Origin: Mycolicibacterium hodleri
GTDB taxonomy: Bacteria > Actinomycetota > Actinomycetes > Mycobacteriales > Mycobacteriaceae
Reading direction: 5' to 3'
DNA: 64,000 nt
Assembly (NCBI RefSeq): GCF_006439015.1
Contig: NZ_RCZG01000002.1
Location: 124,001 to 188,000 of the forward strand
A program made the position numbers and the translations under genes. Positions 51,909 through 64,000 of this stretch are shown piece after piece. The notes beneath the pieces are model-generated. The model was not told the DNA's origin and ran no database searches. It was given only the letters and a program-made list of their open reading frames with translations. Numbering within the stretch: position 1 is the stretch's first letter; every line of letters begins with the position of its first letter.

Positions 51909-51981
51909 GGGGCTATAGCGCAGTTGGTAGCGCGTCTCGTTCGCATCGAGAAGGTCAGGGGTTCGATTCCCCTTAGCTCCA
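51909..51981 (+). tRNA. tRNA-Ala (anticodon CGC)
   Basis: A complete 73-nt cloverleaf: acceptor stem GGGGCTA paired with TAGCTCC plus discriminator A, D-arm GCGC-AGTTGGTA-GCGC, anticodon stem TCTCG/CGAGA with loop TTCGCAT (anticodon CGC reads GCG, Ala), and T-arm GGGG-TTCGATT-CCCC. CCA is not encoded. It marks the end of the conserved gene order. Confidence 0.97.
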
Positions 51982-51988
51982 CTTTTCG

Positions 51989-52319: not shown

Positions 52320-53411
52320 ATGCCAAGAGATATCAAGATTCCACCCGCCAAAGTGGCGCGTATTGGCGAGCGTCTTCGCGACTACCTCTATCTACTTCAT
52401 CGACGATCGGCGCCCGCGCCGGTGGCGATGCTGGAGATGATCATGGCTGCATGGGTATCGCAGGCAATTCAAGCGGCCGCCGAACTTGGCATCGCCGACA
52501 CCCTCGCCGAACGTCCATTGCCCTTGGATGAATTGGCAAACCGCGTCGGTGCGGACCCCGACGCCCTCAGGCGACTGATGCGGGCATTGATCAGCCGTGG
52601 CATCTTCCGCCAGCGTCGCGGCGGAAGATATGAGCTGACCGCTCTCGGTGAAACCCTTCGCTCGGACACCCGGTTCTCGATGAACGCGTATGCGCGCTTT
52701 GTCGGTTCGCCGCAACACCGGGAGCATTGGAGTTATCTGGTCGAATCGGTCAGGACGGGCAAGCCGATCATTCCGCAACTGCGCGGAAAGGACGGATTCG
52801 ATTATCTCCGGGATGAACCCGAGCTCGCGAAGGGTTTCAACGACGCGATGACCGACCTCGCCGGCCTGGCGGCGCATGCCTTCGTTCCCGGATACAACTT
52901 CGGTCCGTACCGCACGATCGTTGATGTCGGCGGTGGGCACGGGGCGCTGCTGTCCACCATCTTGGCCGCAACACCGAACGCGCGGGGCGTACTCTATGAC
53001 CTGCCCGAGGTCGTCGCGGGTGCGCCCCCGCTACTCTCTGCGCCGGGAATCAAAGACCGGGTGCGCGTCGAAGGTGGGTCGTTCTTTGACAGCGTTCCCT
53101 CCGGCGGCGACGCCTATGTCCTCAAGAACGTTATCCACGACTGGCCTGATGAGCAGGCCGTTGCGATCCTGCGTAACGTGCGTGCGGCCGCCGGTGCGGA
53201 TTCGACAGTACTGCTAGTGGAGATGGTGCTCCCCGAGCACGACCGTGACTTCGCGGGTAAGTGGAGTGACGTGGAGATGCTGCTGGATGCGAACGGCCGC
53301 GAACGCGACGCCGCGGAATACCGAGATCTGCTTAGGCAAGGCGGATTTCGGATGAACCGGATAGTGCAAACAGCCTCACCGTACAGCGTTGTCGAAGCAA
53401 CGCCCGCGTGA
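52320..53411 (+). CDS. SAM-dependent O-methyltransferase (hydroxyneurosporene/COMT type)
   Basis: This 363-aa class I methyltransferase has an N-terminal winged-helix dimerisation domain (about 35-115: AAELGIADTLAERPLPLDELANRVGA, RGGRYELTALGETLR) and a C-terminal Rossmann domain. Motif I is IVDVGGGHGALL, the catalytic His is in KNVIHDWPDEQA and VLLVEMVLPEHD follows. The general-base His of phenolic O-methyltransferases is present. Beside a dialkylresorcinol-type cluster it probably methylates a phenolic OH of the product (inference). It is convergent with the acyl-AMP ligase gene, 105 bases apart, and separately transcribed. Confidence 0.88.
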   Translation: MPRDIKIPPAKVARIGERLRDYLYLLHRRSAPAPVAMLEMIMAAWVSQAIQAAAELGIADTLAERPLPLDELANRVGADPDALRRLMRALISRGIFRQRRGGRYELTALGETLRSDTRFSMNAYARFVGSPQHREHWSYLVESVRTGKPIIPQLRGKDGFDYLRDEPELAKGFNDAMTDLAGLAAHAFVPGYNFGPYRTIVDVGGGHGALLSTILAATPNARGVLYDLPEVVAGAPPLLSAPGIKDRVRVEGGSFFDSVPSGGDAYVLKNVIHDWPDEQAVAILRNVRAAAGADSTVLLVEMVLPEHDRDFAGKWSDVEMLLDANGRERDAAEYRDLLRQGGFRMNRIVQTASPYSVVEATPA

Positions 53412-53516
53412 CTGAAATAATCTCCGACCGACCGACGGGGTGTGATTTGCGCGAGCCCACGTGGCGGGCCGTCGACGGCAACGAGCAGGGTCGTCAGCCT
53501 TGTCTCTCGGAATCGA

Positions 53517-55151
53517 TCAGAGCAGCGCTCTAGCGCTGCTCCGGCGCAGCTTGCCCGACGATGTCTTCGGCAGCGTTCCGGCGGGAAACAACCGTACCTC
53601 GCGCGGCGGGTGCCCAACGTGGTGATTCAACCGGGCTACGATGTCGCGGCTGATCCGCAAGCGCACGTCCTCCTCGTCCGCGTTACGCACTTCGGCCATC
53701 ACAACGAAGCCCTCAGGCTCGGTGTCAACCCGGAGCGCGATCACGCAACCCTCGCGCACACCGTTGACGCTGGCGACCGCTCGTTCGATATCGTGCGGAT
53801 ACAGGTTCTTCCCGGCCACAATGATGAGATCCTTCGTCCGGCCGCACACGTGGACCCGCCCCTCCTCGTCGAGGTAACCGAGATCGCCGCTGTCGAACCA
53901 TCCGTCATGGCGGGGGAGTGGAACGATGCCGTCGGCTGTGAGATAGCGGTCAGCAACCGCAGGACCGCGAAGTTCGATGGTGCCAATATCTCTGGGCCCC
54001 TGCGCTATTCCGTCCCGGGTGATGCGCACATCCATGCCCGTCAATGGGAGTCCCAAGCACACGATGTGCTGCACGTCCGCAGCGTCGTCAGCGCCGTAGG
54101 GAGCCGGCCGCGCGCGGCGGGATTCCGAGACGGCCTGCCGGGAAACCGTGTCGAAGATCGGCGGGTCTTCGTGCGCGCCGAAGGATACCGCCAGCGTGGC
54201 TTCGGCGAGCCCGTAGCACGGCATCGGCGCGCTCGGCCGTAGCCCGAAACGCCCACCCGCCGTCGCGAAACTCTTTACGTCGCGATGATCGATGGGCTCG
54301 GCTCCATTGATCGCCACCCGCAGCGACGAAAGGTCAATGGCGGCCGGGTCGGCCCGCTCCAGAACGCGGGCCAATATGGAGTAGGCAAAATTGGGTCCCG
54401 CGGTGAGGGTGGCCCGATGCCTGCTGATCAACTCGGCCCATACGAGCGGCCGCCGCAGGAACTGATCAGACGTAAGCACGACGGCTTCGAGCGCCAATTG
54501 CATGGGGACACAGATAAACCCGATCATGCCCATATCGTGGGACAACGGGAGCCAACTCACACTTACGTCCCGATCGACGTCGACGTTCAGGCCCGCGCTG
54601 ATCGCCACGGTGGTCGCCGCCAGATTCCCGTGGCTGATCTCCACCGCCTTTGGTGTGCCGGTCGACCCCGAGGTGAGCTGCCGCAGTGCGATATCCGCCT
54701 CATTGGCGTCCTCCGGCTCGATCGACCCAGCGCCGCGCATGGACTCCACGGTGCACACGGCCACAGCGCGGGCGGCAAGGTGATCCAGCGCCATCAGGAA
54801 CGGCTCTCCGACGACAACCACGTCGGCGCGAATCATTCGGATCGCCCGCACCGTGTCGTCAAGCCAGACCGCCAGATCCGTGCGTGGTGTCGGTTGCTGC
54901 AGCATCGTCAGCGCGGCGCGCCGCATCCAGATCGCCTGCGCTAGTGGCGCGACGTCCGCCGCCTCGGCGGCTAGCACCGCGATCGAGCCGTGGCAGCCAA
55001 TTCCCTTGGCGGCCAGGGCTCCGGCCATCCGCTTCGCCTGTTCGTGGACCTCGCGCCAGGTCAACCTGACGGGATCGGCGAGCGTGCCGACATTCAAACC
55101 GTGCGGTGACGAAGCCGCAGCGGCGAAAACGTCGCGGGTGAAGATGCTCAT
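53517..55151 (-). CDS. Acyl-AMP ligase (FAAL-type adenylating enzyme, Rv1013/Pks16-like)
   Basis: This 544-aa ANL-superfamily enzyme matches the length and sequence of M. tuberculosis Rv1013. Core motifs are A3 LTSGSTGTPKAVEISHGNL, A4 SWLPLSHDMGMIGF, A5 MPCYGLAEATLAVSF, A7 WFDSGDLGYLDEEG, A8 VCGRTKDLIIVAGKNLYPHDIE and A10 TLPKTSSGKLRR with the adenylation Lys. It should activate a fatty acid as acyl-AMP and load it on a carrier protein. ATG 55151 gives the usual N-terminus MSIFTRDVF. It is the last gene of the operon, 63 bases after the polyketide synthase. Confidence 0.9.
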   Translation of the reverse strand: MSIFTRDVFAAAASSPHGLNVGTLADPVRLTWREVHEQAKRMAGALAAKGIGCHGSIAVLAAEAADVAPLAQAIWMRRAALTMLQQPTPRTDLAVWLDDTVRAIRMIRADVVVVGEPFLMALDHLAARAVAVCTVESMRGAGSIEPEDANEADIALRQLTSGSTGTPKAVEISHGNLAATTVAISAGLNVDVDRDVSVSWLPLSHDMGMIGFICVPMQLALEAVVLTSDQFLRRPLVWAELISRHRATLTAGPNFAYSILARVLERADPAAIDLSSLRVAINGAEPIDHRDVKSFATAGGRFGLRPSAPMPCYGLAEATLAVSFGAHEDPPIFDTVSRQAVSESRRARPAPYGADDAADVQHIVCLGLPLTGMDVRITRDGIAQGPRDIGTIELRGPAVADRYLTADGIVPLPRHDGWFDSGDLGYLDEEGRVHVCGRTKDLIIVAGKNLYPHDIERAVASVNGVREGCVIALRVDTEPEGFVVMAEVRNADEEDVRLRISRDIVARLNHHVGHPPREVRLFPAGTLPKTSSGKLRRSSARALL

Positions 55152-55214
55152 CGCATCAGACCCTGTCCCGCGCCGCACTGTCCAGAATGCGTGCAACTTC
55201 GACTACCGAGAGAG

Positions 55215-58187
55215 TCACTGGATCACGCCAGTGTCCGAACCGAGCCGTTCCACCACGAAGTCGACGACGTCTCCGACGCTATGGATCTTCGGCAGCACTT
55301 CGACGATGGAGATGTGCCCCAGATGTGGATAGTCAGCCCGTAGCCGGTCGAGAAGGCGAAATTGCAGCAGCGAGTCGTAGCCCAGATCATCACTGAGCCG
55401 GCTGGTCCGGGCGAGCTGGCCGACCGAATAGCCACCGACATCGGCAATCAACGCCAGGATCGCACCCTCCGATGCGGTCGGCACCTGCGCAGGCTGTTGG
55501 CGCTCGGCGACGGGCGTTACCGCCGCGGGCTGTGCCGTCTGTTCGCGCAGGTGGCTCGTCACGGCCTTCGGTACGGCGGCGGCAGCCTCGCCGTCGAACC
55601 AGAACCGACTAGAGGTGCCGAACACGTACGGCGGTATCCGGTGCAGCTGGCCGACCGGCCGGCCGTACAACGGCGACAGGTCGGGCGAGTACCCGTCGCG
55701 CAGCAATGTCGCAGCTACGCCCAGGAGCTCCATTCCAGTGGAATCCGGTCCGCTGCACAATGCCAGCGACCGGGTCTGCGGCGGCAGTCCGCACTGTCGG
55801 GCCAGCGCGAGCAGCGTGGATCGTGGACCCGCCTCGGCGACATAGTCGGTACTTGCCGCGCTGACTGCGGCCTGGACGGCGTCGAAGAGCCGCACCGGCG
55901 AACAGATCTGGTTGGCCCAGTAGTCGGTGTCCATTTCGTGGCCCTCGACTTCCCTGCCGAGAACGGTGGAGAAGAGCCGAAACTCCGCCGGACTCGGCGC
56001 CAGCCCCGACATCTCGTGCCTGAACTCCGCCACCATGGGCTCCATCAGCGGCGAGTGAAAGGCATGCGAGACCGTCAGGTTCACCGCTCGGCCACCCTGC
56101 GCGAGAACGGCGTCATGGGCCAGGCTGACCTCGTCTGCGGCACCAGACACGACCACCGAGCGTGGCCCGTTGACGGCGGCGATCACGCACCCGGGCTTGT
56201 CGGCGATCAGTGCCGCGGCCTGCTCGACGGTGAGATCGATCGCGAGCATCGCCCCACCGGCGGGCAACGCGCCCATCAGCTGTCCCCTGACTGCGACGAG
56301 CCTGGCCGCATCTTCGACTGACAGCACACCCGCCAGGCAGGCGGCGGCGACCTCGCCGACGCTGTGGCCGATGCCGAATACGGGACGGATCCCGCTCTGC
56401 AGCAATGTCTTTCCCAACGCGTAGGACACCGCGAACAAAGCCGGCTGCGCGAGGCTGGTGTGAGCGGAGTCGGGATCGTCGCCGAAGACCGCCGCGTACA
56501 GACCCGAAGCCAGGTACGGATCAAGGGCGGCCGCTGCGACGTCCAGATGGTTCCGGTACACGGGGTTGGCGTCGCGGAGCGACCGGGTCATGCCCGAATA
56601 CTGAGTCCCTTGCCCTGAGCACATGAGCCCAACTCCGGCGGCGACCTTGCGCATCGGAGCGGACGACGCCAGATCGGGCCGGTTACCGGCGAGAAACTCC
56701 TGCAGCCCATCGACAAGCAGGCCGCGGCTGCCTTCGAGCACGAGGCGATGACGCTGCGATCGCTTGACGACGTTGGTGGTGCGGCAAAACGAGGCCAGTT
56801 CCTGATCGTCGAGGCTTTCCAGCGCGGTGGCGATCGAAGCGGTGTTGCGCCGCAGCGCCTGCTCAGAGGGCGCCGATAGCATCAGGACACCTGTCGCGCC
56901 GGGGTCGGCCACCGCTGTGGCCGGCGCCGACTCCAGCACCGCGTGCACGTTGCTGCCGCCCAGCCCAAACGAACTCACCCCGGCGAACACCCCGTGCACA
57001 GGCAATTGCTGCGCACTGTCGGCAAGGCGCAGCCCATGTGCGTCGAGCCGCAATCCCGCATTGGCGCTGTCGCCGAACACGGTCGGGGGCAGCACGCCGT
57101 GGTGCAGCGCCAGACAAGCCTTGATGAACGCCGCAATCCCGGCGCTGCCCTCGGTGTGGCCGATGTTCCCCTTCACTGAACCGAGCAGACAGGGCTTGCC
57201 GCCGCGCACCTCGTGGATATCGCCCAGCGCGTTGGCCTCGATCAAGTCGCCGAGAAAAGTGCCGGTGCCGTGTGCTTCGACGAAGCTGATCTGTTCTGCC
57301 TCGACCTCCGCAAGCGCGAGTGCGCGGCGCATCAGCTCCACCTGCGACCTGCGATTCGGGGCGGTGATTCCGTTGCTGCGGCCATCGTGGTTGGTGACTG
57401 AACTTTTCACCACAGCGTAGATCGGCTGGCCGTCGGCAATGGCGTCGTCGAGTCGGCGCAGCACCACTGCGGCCACGCCCTCGCCACGGCCGATGCCATC
57501 GGCGCTCTGTCCGAACGGCTTGCAGCGACCATCTGGCGCGGACAGCCCGGCCTGAGTGTAAAAGATCGAAAGCGCCGGTGTGAGAAGCAGATTCGCACCG
57601 GCGGCGATGACCGTGTCGGTGTCCCCAGCGCGAAGCGCCGCACAGCCCTGGTGCACGGCCATCAACGATGACGAGCAGGCGGAATCGATGGCCATGCTCG
57701 GCCCGGTGAGGTTCAGGTGGTATGAGATGCGATTGGCCGTCATGAAGTAGCCACTGCCCGCACCACGAAATGCAGTGACCTCGGGGTAGTCGAGCAGCTG
57801 GAGGCTGGTCCACTCGCTGGACATCATTCCGACGAATACCCCCGTTGGGGTGCCGGCCAGCGATCGGGGATCGATTCCGCCGTCTTCCAGTGCGCGCCAA
57901 GCTGTCTGCAAGAGCAGTCTTTGCTGCGGGTCGAGTGCTGCCGCCTCAATCGGTGCGATGCCGAAATGGTCGTTGTCGAATGCATCGACGTTGTCGATGA
58001 AGTGGGCGCGTCGGGTGTTCATCGATCCGGCCGCGCCGTCGGGGCGGTAGTAGGCGTCGACATCCCAACGCTGCGAGGGCACTTCGGTGTCGGTGACGAC
58101 GCCGTCCATCAGCAATCGCCAGAACGCGTCCTTATCCGGCGCGCCCGGGAAGCGGCAGTCGATGCCGACCACGGCGAACGCCGTCAC
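55215..58187 (-). CDS. Non-reducing type I polyketide synthase module, KS-AT-ACP
   Basis: The protein is 990 aa. The ketosynthase starts FAVVGIDCRFPGAPDKDAFW, with catalytic Cys in DSACSSSL (about 170) and His in VEAHGTGT and NIGHTEG. The acyltransferase has active Ser in GHSVGEVAAA (about 609) and SHAFHSPLM, suggesting malonyl rather than methylmalonyl (HAFH). The C-terminal ACP has the phosphopantetheine Ser in DDLGYDSLLQF (about 939). No KR, DH, ER or TE is present, so one round gives an unreduced beta-ketoacyl-ACP. The GTG overlaps the upstream carrier-protein stop (GTGA). Confidence 0.93.
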   Translation of the reverse strand: MTAFAVVGIDCRFPGAPDKDAFWRLLMDGVVTDTEVPSQRWDVDAYYRPDGAAGSMNTRRAHFIDNVDAFDNDHFGIAPIEAAALDPQQRLLLQTAWRALEDGGIDPRSLAGTPTGVFVGMMSSEWTSLQLLDYPEVTAFRGAGSGYFMTANRISYHLNLTGPSMAIDSACSSSLMAVHQGCAALRAGDTDTVIAAGANLLLTPALSIFYTQAGLSAPDGRCKPFGQSADGIGRGEGVAAVVLRRLDDAIADGQPIYAVVKSSVTNHDGRSNGITAPNRRSQVELMRRALALAEVEAEQISFVEAHGTGTFLGDLIEANALGDIHEVRGGKPCLLGSVKGNIGHTEGSAGIAAFIKACLALHHGVLPPTVFGDSANAGLRLDAHGLRLADSAQQLPVHGVFAGVSSFGLGGSNVHAVLESAPATAVADPGATGVLMLSAPSEQALRRNTASIATALESLDDQELASFCRTTNVVKRSQRHRLVLEGSRGLLVDGLQEFLAGNRPDLASSAPMRKVAAGVGLMCSGQGTQYSGMTRSLRDANPVYRNHLDVAAAALDPYLASGLYAAVFGDDPDSAHTSLAQPALFAVSYALGKTLLQSGIRPVFGIGHSVGEVAAACLAGVLSVEDAARLVAVRGQLMGALPAGGAMLAIDLTVEQAAALIADKPGCVIAAVNGPRSVVVSGAADEVSLAHDAVLAQGGRAVNLTVSHAFHSPLMEPMVAEFRHEMSGLAPSPAEFRLFSTVLGREVEGHEMDTDYWANQICSPVRLFDAVQAAVSAASTDYVAEAGPRSTLLALARQCGLPPQTRSLALCSGPDSTGMELLGVAATLLRDGYSPDLSPLYGRPVGQLHRIPPYVFGTSSRFWFDGEAAAAVPKAVTSHLREQTAQPAAVTPVAERQQPAQVPTASEGAILALIADVGGYSVGQLARTSRLSDDLGYDSLLQFRLLDRLRADYPHLGHISIVEVLPKIHSVGDVVDFVVERLGSDTGVIQ

Positions 58188-58444
58188 GGCGCGGCTCGCT
58201 CGGCGATCAGATGGGTCGCGATTGCTTCGATGGTCGGGTGATCCCACACAATGGTGGTATCGACGGCGAATCCCTTCTCGTGCTCGAGGTCCGTGCACAA
58301 CTTCATCGCCAAGACGGAGTCGATCCCACAATCGGCCAACGGCGTCTCGACATCGATCGTGTGCGGCGGAACATTGAGGTAAGAAGCCACCTTCATGGTC
58401 AGCCAGTGGGCAAGTTCTTGGAACTCCGAACCCTGCTCCGTCAT
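58184..58444 (-). CDS. Acyl carrier protein (second of the cluster)
   Basis: This 86-aa free-standing carrier protein has its phosphopantetheine Ser in LADCGIDSVLAMKL (about residue 43). It is more PKS-like than fatty-acid-like. The ATG overlaps the DarA-like gene stop and its stop overlaps the PKS start, placing it between the resorcinol enzymes and the PKS. It probably receives the acyl group from the acyl-AMP ligase or presents it to the PKS (inference). Confidence 0.92.
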   Translation of the reverse strand: MTEQGSEFQELAHWLTMKVASYLNVPPHTIDVETPLADCGIDSVLAMKLCTDLEHEKGFAVDTTIVWDHPTIEAIATHLIAERAAP

Positions 58445-59394
58445 CGGAGTCTCCCGGCCACTGCCTGGTCGGCGGCTGCCTCACCGAACGAGATTCGGCG
58501 ATGCACGTAAGCACCCACCCCCGCGTTGAACCGCGTACCGCCTGCGACTGCCGCGCAGGCGATCACCGGCAGGCCGACCGCGATGCCGATGGCGAGGCCA
58601 ATCACAAAGGTCACCAAGCTCGCGGCCTGCGCCACCGCGCCGAATCGCCCCGCCGACCTGACAATTGCGCCCCACCTCCGAAACGCCTTGCCCGCAAGGA
58701 TGTCCGCTGCTGCCAAGGTGGGCACGATGGGCGCCGCATCTTGCGAACAGTGCTGCGACTCGGCGATACGCCGACCCACACCCGTGACCCGTTCGAGTTC
58801 GTCGGCACCGACTCCCGCCCGTCCGAACCGCAAAAAGGGTTCACGCTTGCCGGCGAGCAGCCAGCGCAAGGTGGTCACGAATGTTATGGCCTGCGGCCGA
58901 GTGTCGGTCGCGGCGACTACCTCCACCGACCGGGCACCAGCAGATCGCAGCAGCCAGCACACCTCGATCGCTGCCGAGTACCACATGTTGCGGCACGCGA
59001 TCACCGAGACGACCCTTCGATCCCGGAAGGCTTCGGGGTGCGCTTTGAGCAGCGAGCGGATGGGCAGCGAGGGCGCCAGGTACCACACTTGGTAGGCCAG
59101 GATCGCCAATTCGTCCGGTCCGGTCTCGAAGCCTCCTGTCGGTTCGACGAGTTCCACGAGCGCCTTCGGATCTACCGATGCCGGGAACACGCCGAAGAAT
59201 CGCCGAGTCGGCCACGGAAAGGGAAACGCGAGGCGCGGTTGAGCGTCCACCCAGCGGACGTCCCAGCCGCGTTCGGCCAGCGGCGTCGTCAACGCCTCGG
59301 TGACCTCGCGTAGTTGTCCGGTCTGCGTATAGAGGTAGACCACCGCCCGAGGCGCAGGTTGCTCGGCCGGGGGAGGCCCGGAAGCCTGTGTCAT
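58441..59394 (-). CDS. darA: DarA-like dialkylresorcinol-condensing (aromatising) enzyme
   Basis: The protein is 317 aa. The N-terminal flavodoxin-like region begins VVYLYTQTGQLREVTEAL. Diagnostic DarA features follow: FPFPWPTRRFFGVFPASV, ELAILAYQVWYLAPSLPIRSLL, VVSVIACRNMWYSAAIEV and AITFVTTLRWLLAGKREPFL. In Pseudomonas and Bacteroidetes DarA converts the DarB product to a dialkylresorcinol. A C-terminal hydrophobic hairpin (ASLVTFVIGLAIGIAVGLPV and IACAAVAGG) suggests membrane association. The ATG overlaps the DarB-like stop (ATGA). Confidence 0.88.
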   Translation of the reverse strand: MTQASGPPPAEQPAPRAVVYLYTQTGQLREVTEALTTPLAERGWDVRWVDAQPRLAFPFPWPTRRFFGVFPASVDPKALVELVEPTGGFETGPDELAILAYQVWYLAPSLPIRSLLKAHPEAFRDRRVVSVIACRNMWYSAAIEVCWLLRSAGARSVEVVAATDTRPQAITFVTTLRWLLAGKREPFLRFGRAGVGADELERVTGVGRRIAESQHCSQDAAPIVPTLAAADILAGKAFRRWGAIVRSAGRFGAVAQAASLVTFVIGLAIGIAVGLPVIACAAVAGGTRFNAGVGAYVHRRISFGEAAADQAVAGRLR

Positions 59395-60542
59395 ACCGGC
59401 GATTCCGACTTGGAAGCCGCCGTCACCGCAGTGAGGTGCATGTACGACACCGCGAATCGGCCGGATTCCGGCACCATGCACAACAGCGTGTCACCCTCGT
59501 TGATCAGGCCCTCGGTCATCATCTCGTCGAGGATGACGAAGATGGCGGCGCTCCCGATGTTTCCGATTTTCGTAAGGTTGCTATACCACATTTCGGGACG
59601 GCCCATGTCGATGTTGCGCCGAGAGCACTCGCCGATCATCAGAGTCTTCATGCGTTCGCTCGAGTAGTGCGCGGGGAACCACGTCACCCTCCTCGGGTCG
59701 AATTTCCCCATGGCGCGGAGGCGTTCGTACTCGTCGATGCCAACGCGTACCAGATGCGGCAATAAGGACAGCTTCTGACGCAAAGCCATCGCACCGTCGG
59801 CCGCAGCGGCTGCCACCGTCGGGTAGTCGCCCCAGACCTTCGACGCAGCGTTGTCGTTACTGCCGAGGTACATGCACGCCTGTTCCGTGTTCGCATACGA
59901 CGTCAGCGTGATCCAGTCGATGCGAAGACTGATTCCCTCTGTCACGGGCGTGCTCTCGATCACCGCCGCGCCTGCACCGTCGGAGAGCATGTAGCGCAGG
60001 AACGCGACTTCCATCGGCAACGCCCCGTCGTCCGAGACCGCCGTCATGTCCTCGTAGCGGGTGCTCTTGAACCCGCGAGACGCGAATTCGCTGGCGACGC
60101 AGATCGCGTTGCGCTTCTCGCCGATCGCCACCTGCAGGTACGCGTTCTTGAGCGCCATCATCCCGCAACTGCAGATGCCGTGTGTGGTCGCGATCTCGAG
60201 CGGTCCGTAGCCCAACTCTCCGTGCACCATGCTGGCATGCCCGGGTCCCATCAGATCGGGCACAGTCGTTGCCGCCGTGAGCAGTTCAACGTCGTCGGGT
60301 CCGAGTCCGGCGCGCTCGGCGGCAACGCGCACCGCGCCAGCCGCCATTGCCGCGTTCGACATGACGGTTTGTTGATTCTTGTCGATCGCGTAGTGGCGCG
60401 TCTTGATTCCGCAATTCGCGAGAATCAGATCCTTCAGGTCAGAGGACGCATGCCCCGCTTTGCCGATGTAGTCTTCGATCTCGTCGTTGGGTACTGGGTA
60501 GCCGGGGAGAAAAGCGCCGGTCGCGGTGATGTATGCACTCAT
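59391..60542 (-). CDS. darB: DarB-like ketosynthase (KAS III family)
   Basis: This 383-aa FabH-fold enzyme starts MSAYITATGAFLPGYPVPND. The catalytic Cys is in THGICSCGMMAL, the His in WFPAHYSSERM and the Asn in KIGNIGSAAIF, giving a complete Cys-His-Asn triad. DarB-type enzymes join a beta-ketoacyl thioester to a second acyl (unsaturated) thioester by Michael and Claisen steps, forming a 2,5-dialkyl-cyclohexane-1,3-dione. ATG 60542 has GGAG 9 bases upstream. It sits between its partner carrier protein and the DarA-like gene. Confidence 0.88.
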   Translation of the reverse strand: MSAYITATGAFLPGYPVPNDEIEDYIGKAGHASSDLKDLILANCGIKTRHYAIDKNQQTVMSNAAMAAGAVRVAAERAGLGPDDVELLTAATTVPDLMGPGHASMVHGELGYGPLEIATTHGICSCGMMALKNAYLQVAIGEKRNAICVASEFASRGFKSTRYEDMTAVSDDGALPMEVAFLRYMLSDGAGAAVIESTPVTEGISLRIDWITLTSYANTEQACMYLGSNDNAASKVWGDYPTVAAAAADGAMALRQKLSLLPHLVRVGIDEYERLRAMGKFDPRRVTWFPAHYSSERMKTLMIGECSRRNIDMGRPEMWYSNLTKIGNIGSAAIFVILDEMMTEGLINEGDTLLCMVPESGRFAVSYMHLTAVTAASKSESPV

Positions 60543-60590
60543 CCGAGGAGGCTCCAATGATCGGGTTGTCAAGAGGGGCCGCGCTGGCCG

Positions 60591-60842
60591 TCAGGCCTTG
60601 CCGGCGATCTTCACGAGGATGAGATCCTTGAAGCCGGAGAGTGTCCGCACTCCAGCTATCCGCTCGTCGTTGAGCGAGATGGCATATTTGTTCTCGACGA
60701 TGTCCGCGATGGCGAGAAGTCCGAGCGAATCGACTCCCAGATCGTCCAACGTGGACTCATCAGTGATCTGATCTGGTTCGAGGCCGTAGTGCGCGCCTAG
60801 GTAGTCGACGATGTCGCGTTCGACTTCATATTCGATCGGCAT
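60591..60842 (-). CDS. darC: Acyl carrier protein (DarC-like)
   Basis: This 83-aa carrier protein has its phosphopantetheine Ser in LDDLGVDSLGLLAIADIVENK (about residue 39). Gene order darC-darB-darA matches the core of dialkylresorcinol clusters. GGGGGAT lies upstream of the ATG. It probably carries one of the two chains joined by the DarB-like enzyme. Confidence 0.9.
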   Translation of the reverse strand: MPIEYEVERDIVDYLGAHYGLEPDQITDESTLDDLGVDSLGLLAIADIVENKYAISLNDERIAGVRTLSGFKDLILVKIAGKA

Positions 60843-61151
60843 GACGGATCAGATCCCCCTGTTGTTCAACCGGGTCATATACCACCGCAATCCGGCCCAT
60901 GGACTGCGAGCCCACGGTGACCGTATCTGACGGTGGCGCGCACGGCACGAACTACTCACACATACCTTTCGCGCACTCCCGGCACGACTGCCGTAGCCAG
61001 GAGTCCCTCTATAGAGGGGAAACGAGTAGCAGCCCCAGTCGGTTCAAATTCGTCCTAACATCGTTTCCGCAGCGCCCGGAGTTAGGACACGCCTGCAGAT
61101 TTGAGACCGCAGTGCCGCCAGTTCAATGACGGCGAAGTAGTTGCTGCCCGC
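60843..61151. promoter_or_regulatory. Regulatory gap between mmpL and the dar operon
   Basis: These 309 bases have no gene. CCCTCTATAGAGGG (61005-61018) is a perfect 14-bp palindrome. GTCCTAAC (61052-61059) and GTTAGGAC (61081-61088) form a second inverted repeat. The first contains a possible minus-strand -10 (TATAGA). A promoter and operator for the carrier-protein operon probably lie here. Confidence 0.5.
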
Positions 61152-64000
61152 TCAAGATTGAAGACCCCATCTGGGCCACCAGGTTCTGGTACCGAGAAGT
61201 GCTGCGACGGCCGGCACGGTGAGGGTGCGTACCACGAATGTATCGATCAACAGACCTGCTCCAATCGTGAAGCCGATCTGGGCCACGGTGTAAACGGGGC
61301 TGACCAACATGGCCAACATGGTGACCGCAAAGACAACACCGGCCACGGTAATGACGCCGCCAGTCGCCGTAAATGCCTTAATGATGCCTGAACGAGTCCC
61401 TACCATCGAATTCGCATGGATTCTCGACATGAAGAGCAAGTTATAGTCGGAACCCACGGCGACAAGCGCGACCAAGGACACGAGCGGTACCGCCCAGTAG
61501 AGGTCGATTCCGAGCAGGATCTGCCAGACCAAAACGCCGATGCCCACAGCTGATAAATACGAAAGCACAATGGTGATCATGAGATACATCGGCGCGATCA
61601 GGCCGCCGAGCAGCCATGCCAGGATGATGAAAATGAAGAGCAGCGCAAATGTGGCCACAATCGCAAAGTCTCTGCCGATCATGTGTTGCAAGTCCCTAAA
61701 TCCAGCAGCGACACCGCTGACTTCCATGCGGCTGCCATTGAGCGTGGTCTCTGCCAGCGCCGAATTTGTGGAATTGATGACCGCATCAAGACGACCGAGG
61801 GCGCTCTTCTCATATGCCGTGGAATTACCGAAAACCAGCAGCCGCGCGGAGTGTCCGTCTTTGGATATGAAATAGCTCATTGCCTGCTTCAGGCGGGGAT
61901 CCTGAAATGCACCTTTAGGAACATAGAAACCCGCATCAGCACCGCTCACATTGGCGCCGACTTCGCTGAGGAAGTCGCGAGCCTGGGTCAGGCCGACGAG
62001 GAGATCTTGCATTTGCGGTGAAATCTGCTTCACACCGTCCGCGACCTGCCTCATTCCGGATCGGGCAGAGTCCGCGCCGGCAGCGATCTCACTGAGTTTG
62101 CTGGTAAGCAGCGCTTGACCGTCGGTGAGGTGGTCGGTTCCGTCCGAGGCGGCGGCCAGTCCGGTCTGGAGTTTTCGCAACCCATCCGAGACACGACGAT
62201 TACCGTCCGCCAATTGCCTGGAGCCGACCTTCAGTTGGGTGAGCAGGTAACGGACCCGCCCAACGAGCGATGTGTCCTGAGCCAAGGCCGCCATCTGGTC
62301 GACCTCCCCGCAGTTGCTGCCCTGTTCACAGGGCATGCCGTTGGGCGGAGGGGGGACGAACGTATCCAGCTGTGTGAGGATCGGAGTAACCATGGAATCG
62401 ATGGAATCCGCCATCTCCTTCGAACCATCGGCAAGCCGATCGGTTCCTCCGGAAAGATCGTTGGATCCGCCGGAGGCGGAAAACAGTCCGCTCTGGAGCT
62501 GCTTCATGCCGCTGAGGATTCGCCCGGCCCCTTGGGCCGCTAGTGCATTGCCCGCACTGAGTTGGCCAAGGCCGTCGCTGAGCCGTTGAGTTCCTTGCTC
62601 GAGCTGCTGCAGTTTGGGTTGACTTTCCGCCAGCCCTTGAATTGCCGCGCTGAGTTTGTCGGCAAGCTGCCGGTCTTGGCCGCTCAGGGTGAACTCCGGA
62701 ATCGCTTTACCCTCCGGCTGGGTGGGACTCAGCACCTCGCTCACCCCGGGGACTTTTTGAATAGTCCTGACAACCGAGTTCAGCGCGGAGAAGTCGGCGG
62801 AATTCCGGAGATCGCGGTCCGCCGCGATGAGTATGACGTCGGGCGTAAGTGCACTCGGCTCGTAGTGCCGGGCGATGGCGTCATAGCCCTGGTTGCTCGG
62901 TGTCGTCGCCGGCTGCACTTCTCGTTCGTCGTACCCGGTGACCATCCAGAGCGTCGGTGCCGCTAGCGCAAGCAGGATGGCGATGCTCGTCGCGAGCACC
63001 CGGCCTGGTCGACGGACGATCAGAACACCAACACGCCGCCAGTACCGAGACGAGCCTTCGGCCCTCGGCTCTGCGAAGCCGCGGCGTCCGAGAATTGAGA
63101 GAAGAGCCGGAACGAGCGTCAGCGCAGCGAGTACGGCGACAATCACGCCTATCGAGCACGGCAATCCGGTGGTTCGAAACAGACTGATCTGAGTCGCCGA
63201 CATCACCGCGCAACTCGCGGCCACGGTAAGGCCGGAGGCCACGATGATGCCCGATGTCTCGGTGGCGGACGCCACGATCGACTCGTGAGTCGACATCCCT
63301 CGCCGACGCCCTTGGTGGTAGCCGCTGAGGAGGAAAACTCCGTAATCCGTGCCGGCCCCGAGAAGAATCGCCGCGAGGAGCATCACCGAGAAGATGGATA
63401 CATCGAGGTTGGTGTGCAATGCCAAGAGTGCGACGATGGGGCGTGAAATGCCCAGGGCCAAGCCGACGCTGAGCAACGGTACGAGGATTGTGCTGAGTCG
63501 ACGGTATACGAATAGCAGCAACACGACGATCATTCCCACCGTCGCTGCCGTGATGAGGGCGATCGAATGCTCCTGGGCCGCGATCTCATCACCTATCGTT
63601 GGCGCCGGGCCGGTCAGATAAACCGATAGGCCATCGGGTTTTGGAGTGTGGTCGATCAATCCACGAACAAACTGCTGTCCTGCTCGTTGGGGGGTCCCGC
63701 CCAGCCCACCGTAGAACCGCACAGTCGCATATACGGCCTTGCCGTCCTGGCTGGCGGCGATGTGGATAGTCGCAGGGTCAGGCAGGAGGTCCTGAACCGA
63801 CTCGATCTCGGAATGATTGGCCCGAAGTCTGGCGACCATGTCGTCGTAGTAGGCGCGGTCCACATCGTTGAATCCGCGGTTGTCCTCAAGCACGAGGTAT
63901 CCGATTGCCGACGCTTGGGATTCGCCGAACTGAGTGCCGATCTCCTTGAGAGTGACCAACGATGGCGCCGATTCAGGGATAAGGGGGCCGGATTTCTCGA
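61152..64000 (-). CDS. MmpL-family RND lipid transporter (5' end outside window)
   Basis: About 949 residues are visible; the N-terminus lies beyond the right edge. It shows the two-repeat RND layout: a first membrane bundle with GTDYGVFLLSGYHQGRRRG, a large periplasmic domain with long heptad-like coiled coils (LSDGLGQLSAG, GGTDRLADGSKEM, VSDGLRKLQTG) and a CEQGSNC pair, then a second bundle with VAVGSDYNLLFMSRIHA. MmpL proteins use the proton gradient to export envelope lipids such as PDIM, glycopeptidolipids and trehalose esters. Beside the dar genes it probably exports the resorcinol lipid. It is transcribed toward the dar operon. Confidence 0.93.
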   Translation of the reverse strand, partial: EKSGPLIPESAPSLVTLKEIGTQFGESQASAIGYLVLEDNRGFNDVDRAYYDDMVARLRANHSEIESVQDLLPDPATIHIAASQDGKAVYATVRFYGGLGGTPQRAGQQFVRGLIDHTPKPDGLSVYLTGPAPTIGDEIAAQEHSIALITAATVGMIVVLLLFVYRRLSTILVPLLSVGLALGISRPIVALLALHTNLDVSIFSVMLLAAILLGAGTDYGVFLLSGYHQGRRRGMSTHESIVASATETSGIIVASGLTVAASCAVMSATQISLFRTTGLPCSIGVIVAVLAALTLVPALLSILGRRGFAEPRAEGSSRYWRRVGVLIVRRPGRVLATSIAILLALAAPTLWMVTGYDEREVQPATTPSNQGYDAIARHYEPSALTPDVILIAADRDLRNSADFSALNSVVRTIQKVPGVSEVLSPTQPEGKAIPEFTLSGQDRQLADKLSAAIQGLAESQPKLQQLEQGTQRLSDGLGQLSAGNALAAQGAGRILSGMKQLQSGLFSASGGSNDLSGGTDRLADGSKEMADSIDSMVTPILTQLDTFVPPPPNGMPCEQGSNCGEVDQMAALAQDTSLVGRVRYLLTQLKVGSRQLADGNRRVSDGLRKLQTGLAAASDGTDHLTDGQALLTSKLSEIAAGADSARSGMRQVADGVKQISPQMQDLLVGLTQARDFLSEVGANVSGADAGFYVPKGAFQDPRLKQAMSYFISKDGHSARLLVFGNSTAYEKSALGRLDAVINSTNSALAETTLNGSRMEVSGVAAGFRDLQHMIGRDFAIVATFALLFIFIILAWLLGGLIAPMYLMITIVLSYLSAVGIGVLVWQILLGIDLYWAVPLVSLVALVAVGSDYNLLFMSRIHANSMVGTRSGIIKAFTATGGVITVAGVVFAVTMLAMLVSPVYTVAQIGFTIGAGLLIDTFVVRTLTVPAVAALLGTRTWWPRWGLQS

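What the first reader, a model, noticed from the sequence alone, without database searches (positions are those of the whole stretch)
52320..64000. A dialkylresorcinol-type lipid pathway with its own exporter in a mycobacterium
One compact region encodes an MmpL exporter, a DarC-like ACP, a DarB-like ketosynthase, a DarA-like enzyme, a second ACP, a KS-AT-ACP polyketide synthase, an acyl-AMP ligase and a phenol-type O-methyltransferase. Seen directly: intact catalytic motifs in all enzymes and 4-base overlaps linking darB-darA-ACP-PKS. Known from family: DarA/DarB make dialkylresorcinols in Pseudomonas and flexirubin producers; MmpL proteins export envelope lipids. Inferred route: ligase loads a fatty acid on an ACP, the PKS adds one malonyl unit to give a beta-ketoacyl-ACP, DarB fuses it with a second chain to a cyclohexanedione, DarA aromatises it, the methyltransferase may cap an OH, MmpL exports it. 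I know of no described mycobacterial product of this type.
Basis: partly seen in the sequence, partly recalled or inferred. Interest (0 to 1): 0.93.

Follow-up and report, generated by a model that had tools for sequence, protein, structure and literature searches.

The report
Mycobacterial dialkylresorcinol lipid pathway, probably quinone-forming
A mycobacterium carries relatives of the DarA and DarB enzymes, which elsewhere build dialkylresorcinol lipids, in a gene block that recurs in a minority of its genus, usually with a fatty-acid loading cassette, a ring hydroxylase and a methyltransferase, so it is predicted to make a lipid-tailed methoxy-quinone that no study we could find has described.

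Summary
The window encodes intact DarB and DarA homologues, two ACPs, a KS-AT-ACP PKS, a fatty-acid-activating ligase, an O-methyltransferase and an MmpL. DarA, missed by Pfam and NCBIfam, matches proteins encoded beside StlD/DarB in Photorhabdus and Pseudomonas and is predicted as a flavodoxin fold with a hydrophobic tail.

Two changes. First, the block runs past the window: an HbpA-like aromatic hydroxylase and a glyoxalase-like gene follow. Of 15 genus loci with DarA and DarB, 14 have ACP-PKS-ligase, 12 the methyltransferase, 13 a hydroxylase; none of 80 Gram-negative loci matches that hydroxylase. Second, the MmpL is not conserved (1 of 15).

Most likely product, inferred only: a 2,5-dialkylresorcinol, ring-hydroxylated and O-methylated to a dialkyl methoxy-hydroquinone/benzoquinone, parallel to M. 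smegmatis polyketide quinones. Against: DarB lies in a clade beside the characterised enzymes and below NCBIfam cut-offs. An antiSMASH 'T1pks-Resorcinol' region in another mycobacterium is in print.

The parts
52320..53411 (+). O-methyltransferase (PF00891 with dimerisation domain); predicted to methylate a ring hydroxyl
   Evidence: Pfam 164 bits; nearest solved structure AlpH, E 1e-91; in 12 of 15 genus loci, the window's included
53517..55196 (-). fatty-acid-activating ligase, probably a fatty acyl-AMP ligase (likely start 55151, residue 16 of the ORF)
   Evidence: best solved match is a fatty acyl-adenylate ligase, 3pbk, E 2e-59; but the only NCBIfam model passed is NF005850, named CoA ligase, 700 vs 572 bits, and FAAL models stay below cut-off; 15 of 15 loci
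55215..58187 (-). KS-AT-ACP type I PKS, 990 aa, AT with HAFH
   Evidence: Pfam KS and AT; motifs incl. ACP GYDSL; 14 of 15 loci
58184..58444 (-). ACP2, resembling the N-terminal ACP of Pks13
   Evidence: PF00550 57.6 bits; NF040607 positions 4-78, E 1e-11; 14 of 15 loci
58441..59394 (-). DarA/StlC homologue, predicted flavodoxin-fold aromatase with a hydrophobic C-terminal segment
59391..60542 (-). DarB/StlD-type ketosynthase
   Evidence: StlD 5gk0, E 2e-71; Cys/His/Asn kept in 42 of 42; tree
60591..60842 (-). ACP1, best NCBIfam model AcpM (below cut-off)
   Evidence: at 60 bits or more in 5 of 15 loci, weak in 2 more
61152..64000 (-). MmpL transporter, cut by the window end (the gene runs to 64136 in window numbering; G000:C12:185152-188136); neighbour, not conserved part. 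Two further members of the block lie wholly outside the window, on the + strand: the HbpA-like FAD hydroxylase at G000:C12:188447-190246 and the glyoxalase-like protein at G000:C12:190230-190712
   Evidence: MmpL: PF03176 486 bits, orthologue in 1 of 15 loci, the window itself. Hydroxylase: PF01494 274 and PF21274 40 bits, 2-hydroxybiphenyl 3-monooxygenase E 5e-70, 13 of 15 loci at 200 bits or more. Glyoxalase-like: PF18029 17.5 bits, below its cut-off of 23.6 here, above it in relatives in L134 and L136, 10 of 15 loci

Best explanation
This is a mycobacterial gene block with intact DarA and DarB homologues that would build a 2,5-dialkylresorcinol lipid and, as predicted from the linked ring hydroxylase and O-methyltransferase, would turn it into a dialkyl methoxy-hydroquinone/benzoquinone. 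Steps, all inferred except the genes themselves: (1) the ligase activates a fatty acid and probably loads it on ACP2; (2) the KS-AT-ACP PKS adds one malonyl unit, giving a beta-ketoacyl-ACP; (3) DarB joins it to a 2-enoyl thioester, probably drawn from fatty-acid synthesis and possibly held on ACP1, to give a 2,5-dialkylcyclohexane-1,3-dione; (4) DarA, a predicted flavodoxin-fold protein with a hydrophobic tail, oxidises it to the resorcinol, probably at the membrane; (5) the HbpA-like hydroxylase adds a ring hydroxyl; (6) the methyltransferase caps one hydroxyl. The two free ring carbons of a 2,5-dialkylresorcinol are equivalent by symmetry, and each is ortho to one hydroxyl and para to the other, so hydroxylation at either gives a 1,2,4-triol, a p-hydroquinone that readily becomes a quinone.
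For: DarB: StlD match E 2e-71; Cys/His/Asn in 42 of 42 and the Glu column in 40 of 42, E in the window. DarA: matches to the protein beside DarB/StlD, 33 invariant columns across 31 sequences, flavodoxin fold, hydrophobic segment 31 of 31. Linkage: 15 of 396 genus genomes have DarA at E<=1e-70 and all 15 have DarB; 14 of the 15 also have ACP2-PKS-ligase. The cassette also accompanies a second, distant DarB lineage in 4 genomes, as expected if it feeds DarB. Hydroxylase in 13 of 15 genus loci and in 15 of 18 actinobacterial loci with both DarA and DarB, against 0 of 80 Gram-negative loci, 52 of them at least 16 kb (the 80 are the best of 587 found). OMT in 12 of 15. Hydroxylase nearest to 2-hydroxybiphenyl 3-monooxygenase. 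Precedent: passages in PMC5916927 and PMC9927152 say that in M. smegmatis an alkylresorcinol is O-methylated and oxidised to polyketide quinones. DarB chemistry: passage in PMC4578411; DarB/DarA heterologous proof: passage in PMC3992019.
Against: No product is known. The window's DarB is beside, not inside, the clade with StlD and scores 359 and 316 bits against NCBIfam cut-offs of 450 and 550. DarB can occur alone: G643 has a 75% identical DarB with no DarA match within the 20 kb fetched. No dehydratase in the block to make the enoyl partner. The ligase passes only a model named CoA ligase. Of the 15 genus loci, G060, G262 and G357 lack the OMT; G060 lacks any hydroxylase match and G262 has a weak one only (100 bits, 32%); outside the genus G632 lacks it. 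The hydroxylases differ: others are 51-53%, 34-36% or about 31% identical to the window's apart from one at 83%, so position or substrate could differ. The glyoxalase-like protein is unexplained. This block and the type III PKS quinone genes use different enzyme families, with only a weak match between the two FAD enzymes.
Confidence: 0.55

Rival explanations
1. One reading: the end product is a 2,5-dialkylresorcinol or its mono-O-methyl ether, an envelope lipid exported by the adjacent MmpL, with the hydroxylase a mere neighbour.
For: DarA/DarB and OMT present; the MmpL lies 309 bp upstream of ACP1 on the same strand. Two of 15 loci (G060, G262) have no clear hydroxylase.
Against: The hydroxylase is at least as well linked as the OMT (13 and 12 of 15) and recurs beside DarA-DarB in a same-family genome, G558, and a Streptomyces plasmid. 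The window's MmpL is in 1 of 15 loci.
Confidence: 0.2
2. DarB and DarA act on other acyl partners and give a different ring, such as a pyrone or a non-aromatised cyclohexanedione; the block makes a new scaffold.
For: The actinobacterial DarB clade is separate and the window's DarB is below family cut-offs. Four mycobacterial loci have a DarB plus the cassette but no DarA match. Other ketosynthases make pyrones (PMC4578411, passages).
Against: DarA is retained in all 15 genus loci with a close DarB, and its conserved motifs are those of the StlC/DarA family; Cys/His/Asn and the Glu column are kept in the window's DarB.
Confidence: 0.15
3. The hydroxylase and glyoxalase-like protein belong to an aromatic degradation function, and the block breaks down or detoxifies resorcinols rather than building a quinone.
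For: HbpA-type enzymes serve in catabolism (recalled); VOC folds include ring-cleaving dioxygenases (recalled).
Against: Linkage is to biosynthetic genes in 13 of 15 loci. No ring-cleavage gene was seen, but only some neighbours were annotated, so this is weak.
Confidence: 0.07

Closest known systems
2,5-dialkylresorcinol / stilbene loci (DarA-DarB, StlC-StlD: Pseudomonas, Photorhabdus, Azoarcus, flexirubin producers)
   Same: Adjacent DarA and DarB homologues with conserved catalytic residues and motifs; predicted same core reaction
   Different: Separate actinobacterial DarB clade; DarB precedes DarA; dedicated ligase-ACP-PKS cassette; the ring hydroxylase matches in 0 of 80 Gram-negative loci examined, ligase and OMT each in 1 of 80
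Mycobacterial/Streptomyces polyketide quinone operon (type III PKS, methyltransferase, hydroxylase)
   Same: Predicted logic: resorcinol lipid, O-methylation, ring oxidation to quinone (passages in PMC5916927, PMC9927152). A likely copy of this operon type sits elsewhere in the same genome, C45
   Different: Ring made by DarB/DarA, not a type III PKS; two alkyl chains; PF00891 methyltransferase instead of ICMT type; only a weak match between the FAD enzymes
FadD32-Pks13 loading and condensation in mycolic acid synthesis
   Same: Fatty-acid-activating ligase, ACP resembling the N-terminal Pks13 ACP, KS-AT-ACP
   Different: Separate ACP; no thioesterase domain found in the PKS; PKS scores higher on NF045894 than on Pks13, both below cut-off; malonyl-type HAFH motif
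Streptomyces plasmid locus in NZ_CP108315 (L042)
   Same: ACP-DarB-DarA-FAD monooxygenase in order (its DarA is annotated hypothetical); DarA 49%, DarB 65% identical
   Different: Followed by SCP2, KS II, P450, ACP and reductase genes; no match to the ligase and only a weak KS match to the PKS; no product known to me
antiSMASH 'T1pks-Resorcinol' region, Mycobacterium sp. 13 (M. moriokaense), PMC6351551
   Same: Possibly the same kind of block: DarA homologue P0063 is named Mycolicibacterium moriokaense, and its longest contig, 252,490 bases, equals the end coordinate of another region in the paper's table
   Different: Automated label only, matched to an antibiotic cluster at 7%; no DarA/DarB chemistry in the four passages I saw

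Membership tests
StlD/DarB ketosynthases | Full-length homology to a characterised member | tested here: met
   StlD 5gk0, residues 12-383, E 2e-71
StlD/DarB ketosynthases | Cys-His-Asn catalytic residues, plus a Glu recalled as important for cyclisation in StlD | tested here: met
   Cys, His, Asn in 42 of 42; Glu in 40 of 42, window included; role of Glu recalled
NCBIfam resorcinol_DarB (NF053539) and StlD/DarB subfamily (NF005293) | Curated score cut-off | tested here: not met
   316 vs 550 and 359.4 vs 450 bits; some close relatives are nonetheless named StlD/DarB by NCBI (P0197, P0214)
Gram-negative DarB clade that holds StlD | Position inside the clade | tested here: not met
   Neighbouring actinobacterial clade, 99/100 support, in a 43-row tree rooted on one very long outgroup branch
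DarA/StlC | Homology to the protein encoded beside DarB/StlD | tested here: met
   34% identity, E 1e-35 to Photorhabdus L050; 33 invariant columns of 31 sequences; the name StlC is recalled
DarA/StlC | Aromatase activity | not testable with these tools
   Flavodoxin fold predicted; flavin binding untested
Dialkylresorcinol locus | Adjacent darA and darB | tested here: met
   ATGA overlap at 59391-59394; both genes in one locus in 15 of 15
Dialkylresorcinol locus | Dialkylresorcinol product | not testable with these tools
   needs lipid analysis
Fatty acyl-AMP ligase | Closer to FAALs than to CoA ligases | tested here: inconclusive
   best solved match 3pbk, a fatty acyl-adenylate ligase, E 2e-59; FadD32, FadD23 and FadD28 rank above the first 2-succinylbenzoate--CoA ligase, among adenylation-domain and 'acyl-CoA synthase' entries; but only a model named CoA ligase is passed and FAAL models stay below cut-off
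HbpA-like phenol hydroxylases | FAD_binding_3 plus aromatic-ring hydroxylase C-terminal domain, full-length homology | tested here: met
   PF01494, PF21274; 4cy6 E 5e-70 over 4-566
Type III PKS polyketide quinone operon | Type III PKS in the block | tested here: not met
   the only genome match to PF02797 is on another contig, C45
Pathway with its own MmpL exporter | Transporter conserved with the block | tested here: not met
   window MmpL in 1 of 15 loci, other MMPL in 5 of 15, within the stretches fetched

The most novel reading that the evidence does not exclude
A second, chemically unrelated route to respiratory or redox-active polyketide quinones in mycobacteria: DarB/DarA-built dialkyl methoxy-benzoquinones with two membrane-embedded tails, in a genome that also seems to keep the type III PKS quinone operon, and with the same fatty-acid loading cassette joined to two separate DarB lineages.
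Probability: 0.35. Interest if true: 0.82.

Novelty: new variant of a known kind. Interest (0 to 1): 0.63.

Why it matters
Dialkylresorcinols are signals, pigments and antibiotics in Gram-negative bacteria. A mycobacterial version that ends in a quinone would add a new envelope or respiratory lipid class to a genus whose biology is dominated by its lipids, and would show two unrelated enzyme systems arriving at methoxylated resorcinol-derived quinones. It predicts a product pattern that a single gene deletion and high-resolution lipid mass spectrometry can test.

Tried and rejected
Pfam and NCBIfam for DarA: no hit even at E<=5, so homology was shown through named loci instead. PDB sequence search for DarA: only weak UbiX matches, E 0.007 or worse, not used. 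Pseudoalteromonas plasmid neighbour of DarB proved to be DUF6999; the Pseudoalteromonas, Prevotella and Phocaeicola plasmid stretches (L043-L045) gave no DarA match at E<=0.01.

MmpL as dedicated exporter: rejected as a conserved part. The shorter MMPL of relatives is not specific either: a 67% identical copy lies elsewhere in this genome.

Integration at the tRNA-Ala beside the block: a tRNA-Ala(CGC) also follows sepX in the 7 relatives looked at, but no second copy of the tRNA 3' end was found in the roughly 40 kb beyond, so no att site is claimed. Promoter and terminator scans gave no more than shuffles.

First comparison of the two FAD enzymes used a wrong ORF and was replaced. First script failed. 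G132's hydroxylase was missing from an ORF list but its frame is open.

Rows dropped before counts: 71 of the 86 genus genomes with a DarA match have only weak ones, E 9.7e-14 or worse, and were not studied; G162's DarB fragment at a contig end; the 4 distant-DarB genomes and G643 (DarB without DarA match) are not among the 15. Counts include the window's own locus, and the thioesterase and short-MMPL counts include G159, their query. Structure comparison left the C-terminal helices of DarA barely tested.

Paper searches: (listings; 49, 77 and 78 were longer than the rows shown). Passages seen: PMC5916927, PMC9927152, PMC3949708, PMC6351551, PMC10619280, PMC6600245, PMC4256081, PMC8406957, PMC3992019, PMC4578411. 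PMC6051517 (Anand 2015) is not held and is known only through citing passages.

Full report
WHAT IS THERE. The window is G000:C12:124001-188000 of a 6.38 Mb, 52-contig genome. On the minus strand run MmpL, ACP1, DarB, DarA, ACP2, PKS and a fatty-acid-activating ligase; an O-methyltransferase faces them. DarB, DarA, ACP2 and PKS overlap by four bases each. DarA is 58441-59394, DarB 59391-60542. The MmpL continues to 64136, and 310 bases further on two plus-strand genes follow that no reader of the window could see: a FAD-dependent aromatic hydroxylase and a small glyoxalase-like protein.

WHERE DARB SITS. In a 43-row tree the window's DarB belongs to an actinobacterial clade (15 genus rows, 2 same-family, 1 Streptomyces; 99/100) beside, not inside, a clade with Photorhabdus, Pseudomonas and Azoarcus (96/87); the four Bacteroidota rows fall outside both. 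The root rests on one very long outgroup branch, so which group is oldest is unsure. The window's DarB scores below both NCBIfam cut-offs. Four genus genomes carry a second DarB type (35-38% identical to the window's), which nests inside the Gram-negative clade.

WHAT TRAVELS TOGETHER. In 396 genomes of the genus, DarA at E<=1e-70 occurs in 15, the window's included (86 have some match at E<=0.001; the other 71 only weak ones). DarB at E<=1e-40 occurs in 20: the same 15, the 4 distant ones and a fragment at a contig end. In 401 genomes of the family, DarB at E<=1e-60 occurs in 6: three of those already named and three of one other genus. Counts among the 15 genus loci, the window's included: ligase 15; ACP2 and PKS 14 (not G357); hydroxylase at 200 bits or more 13 (G262 weak, G060 none); OMT 12 (not G060, G262, G357); glyoxalase-like 10; thioesterase 7; ACP1 5 (two more weak); other MMPL 5; window-type MmpL 1. 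Stretches fetched differ in length (13.9 to 60 kb), so absences are absences within them. None of 13 flanking genes of the window used as queries was assigned to a gene in the 14 other loci, so the block probably sits in different chromosomal places. Here it adjoins sepX and a tRNA-Ala, a pair found in the 7 relatives looked at.

THE RING HYDROXYLASE. Its nearest solved relative is 2-hydroxybiphenyl 3-monooxygenase, E 5e-70, an enzyme that hydroxylates a phenol ring. Counting the 15 genus loci, two same-family genomes (G558, G632) and a Streptomyces plasmid, it lies near DarA and DarB in 15 of 18 actinobacterial loci; G060, G262 (weak) and G632 are the exceptions. With the window's enzyme as query, 0 of 80 Gram-negative dar loci have a match, 52 of them at least 16 kb long. 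The copies compared are 83%, 51-53%, 34-36% or about 31% identical to the window's, so the association is old, or was made more than once.

LIKELY MECHANISM. From family knowledge: DarB-class ketosynthases make 2,5-dialkylcyclohexane-1,3-diones from a beta-ketoacyl and an alpha,beta-unsaturated acyl thioester (passage in PMC4578411), and DarB with DarA gives the dialkylresorcinol (passage in PMC3992019). Inferred here: ligase and ACP2 load a fatty acid, the PKS adds malonyl (HAFH; specificity recalled), DarB and DarA close and aromatise the ring. Whether the ligase hands its acyl group to an ACP or to CoA is open: its best solved match is a fatty acyl-adenylate ligase, but the one NCBIfam model it passes is named CoA ligase. 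That the ligase-ACP-PKS cassette also accompanies the distant DarB lineage, without a DarA match, in 4 genomes supports its feeding DarB. The new step is ring hydroxylation. In a 2,5-dialkylresorcinol both free ring carbons are equivalent, each ortho to one hydroxyl and para to the other, so hydroxylation there gives a 1,2,4-triol and hence a p-quinol/quinone; methylation would give a methoxy form. This parallels the polyketide quinones that M. smegmatis makes from alkylresorcinols by O-methylation and oxidation and uses as alternate electron carriers (passages in PMC5916927 and PMC9927152). The same genome carries, on contig C45, a type III PKS with an ICMT-family methyltransferase and a FAD enzyme, a likely copy of that operon type; its FAD enzyme matches the present hydroxylase only weakly.

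EXPORT. The MmpL is real and adjacent but rare: 1 of 15 loci, and 1 of 61 genomes at E<=1e-250. It may export the product in this strain; it is not part of the conserved system.

NOVELTY. New variant of a known kind. Named relatives hold the genes (M. kubicae and M. moriokaense for DarA; M. noviomagense, M. spongiae, M. xanthum, M. palauense for DarB; both lists show the best 120 only). One paper lists an antiSMASH 'T1pks-Resorcinol' region in an M. moriokaense strain without discussing DarA/DarB in the passages I saw. No mycobacterial dialkylresorcinol or derived quinone came up in my ten paper searches, which cover open-licence papers only.

Noticed in passing
L168, L169, L170, L171 (20 kb each): Four mycobacterial genomes carry a distant, Gram-negative-type DarB with the same ACP-PKS-thioesterase-ligase cassette but no DarA match; two of the four have Asp instead of the conserved Glu. 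Possibly a cyclohexanedione or other ring lipid.
   Followed up: partly
P0060 and P0091: DarA homologues that run on into an ACP domain (P0060) or carry a FAD_binding_3 domain (P0091): fusions or gene-calling artefacts that echo the gene order of the block.
   Followed up: no
G000:C45, about 173572-176156 (L187:8573-11157): Type III PKS, ICMT-family methyltransferase and FAD enzyme in a row, resembling the M. smegmatis polyketide quinone operon; so this genome may make two kinds of quinone lipid.
   Followed up: partly
L136:1880-8407 (-): In one genus locus a KS-AT-DH-ER-KR-ACP polyketide synthase of 2175 aa lies directly before DarB on the other strand; it could make the second acyl chain there.
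   Followed up: no
71 genus genomes, e.g. L027-L041: Proteins of about 225-260 aa (some in longer open frames) with roughly 25-30% identity to the flavodoxin-like part of DarA; function unknown.
   Followed up: no
L125 (Pseudomonas bananamidigenes): The only one of 80 Gram-negative dar loci with a match to the window's O-methyltransferase (188 bits).
   Followed up: no
window 51909-51982: tRNA-Ala (CGC) directly beside the block, after sepX as in 7 relatives; no repeated tRNA end found beyond the block.
   Followed up: yes
window 61152-64000: MmpL with G+C of 60.0% (whole gene) against 66.0% for the window (other block genes 56.3-67.1%) and no close orthologue in 60 other genomes: possibly acquired separately, but the G+C is no lower than that of the two ACPs.
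   Followed up: partly
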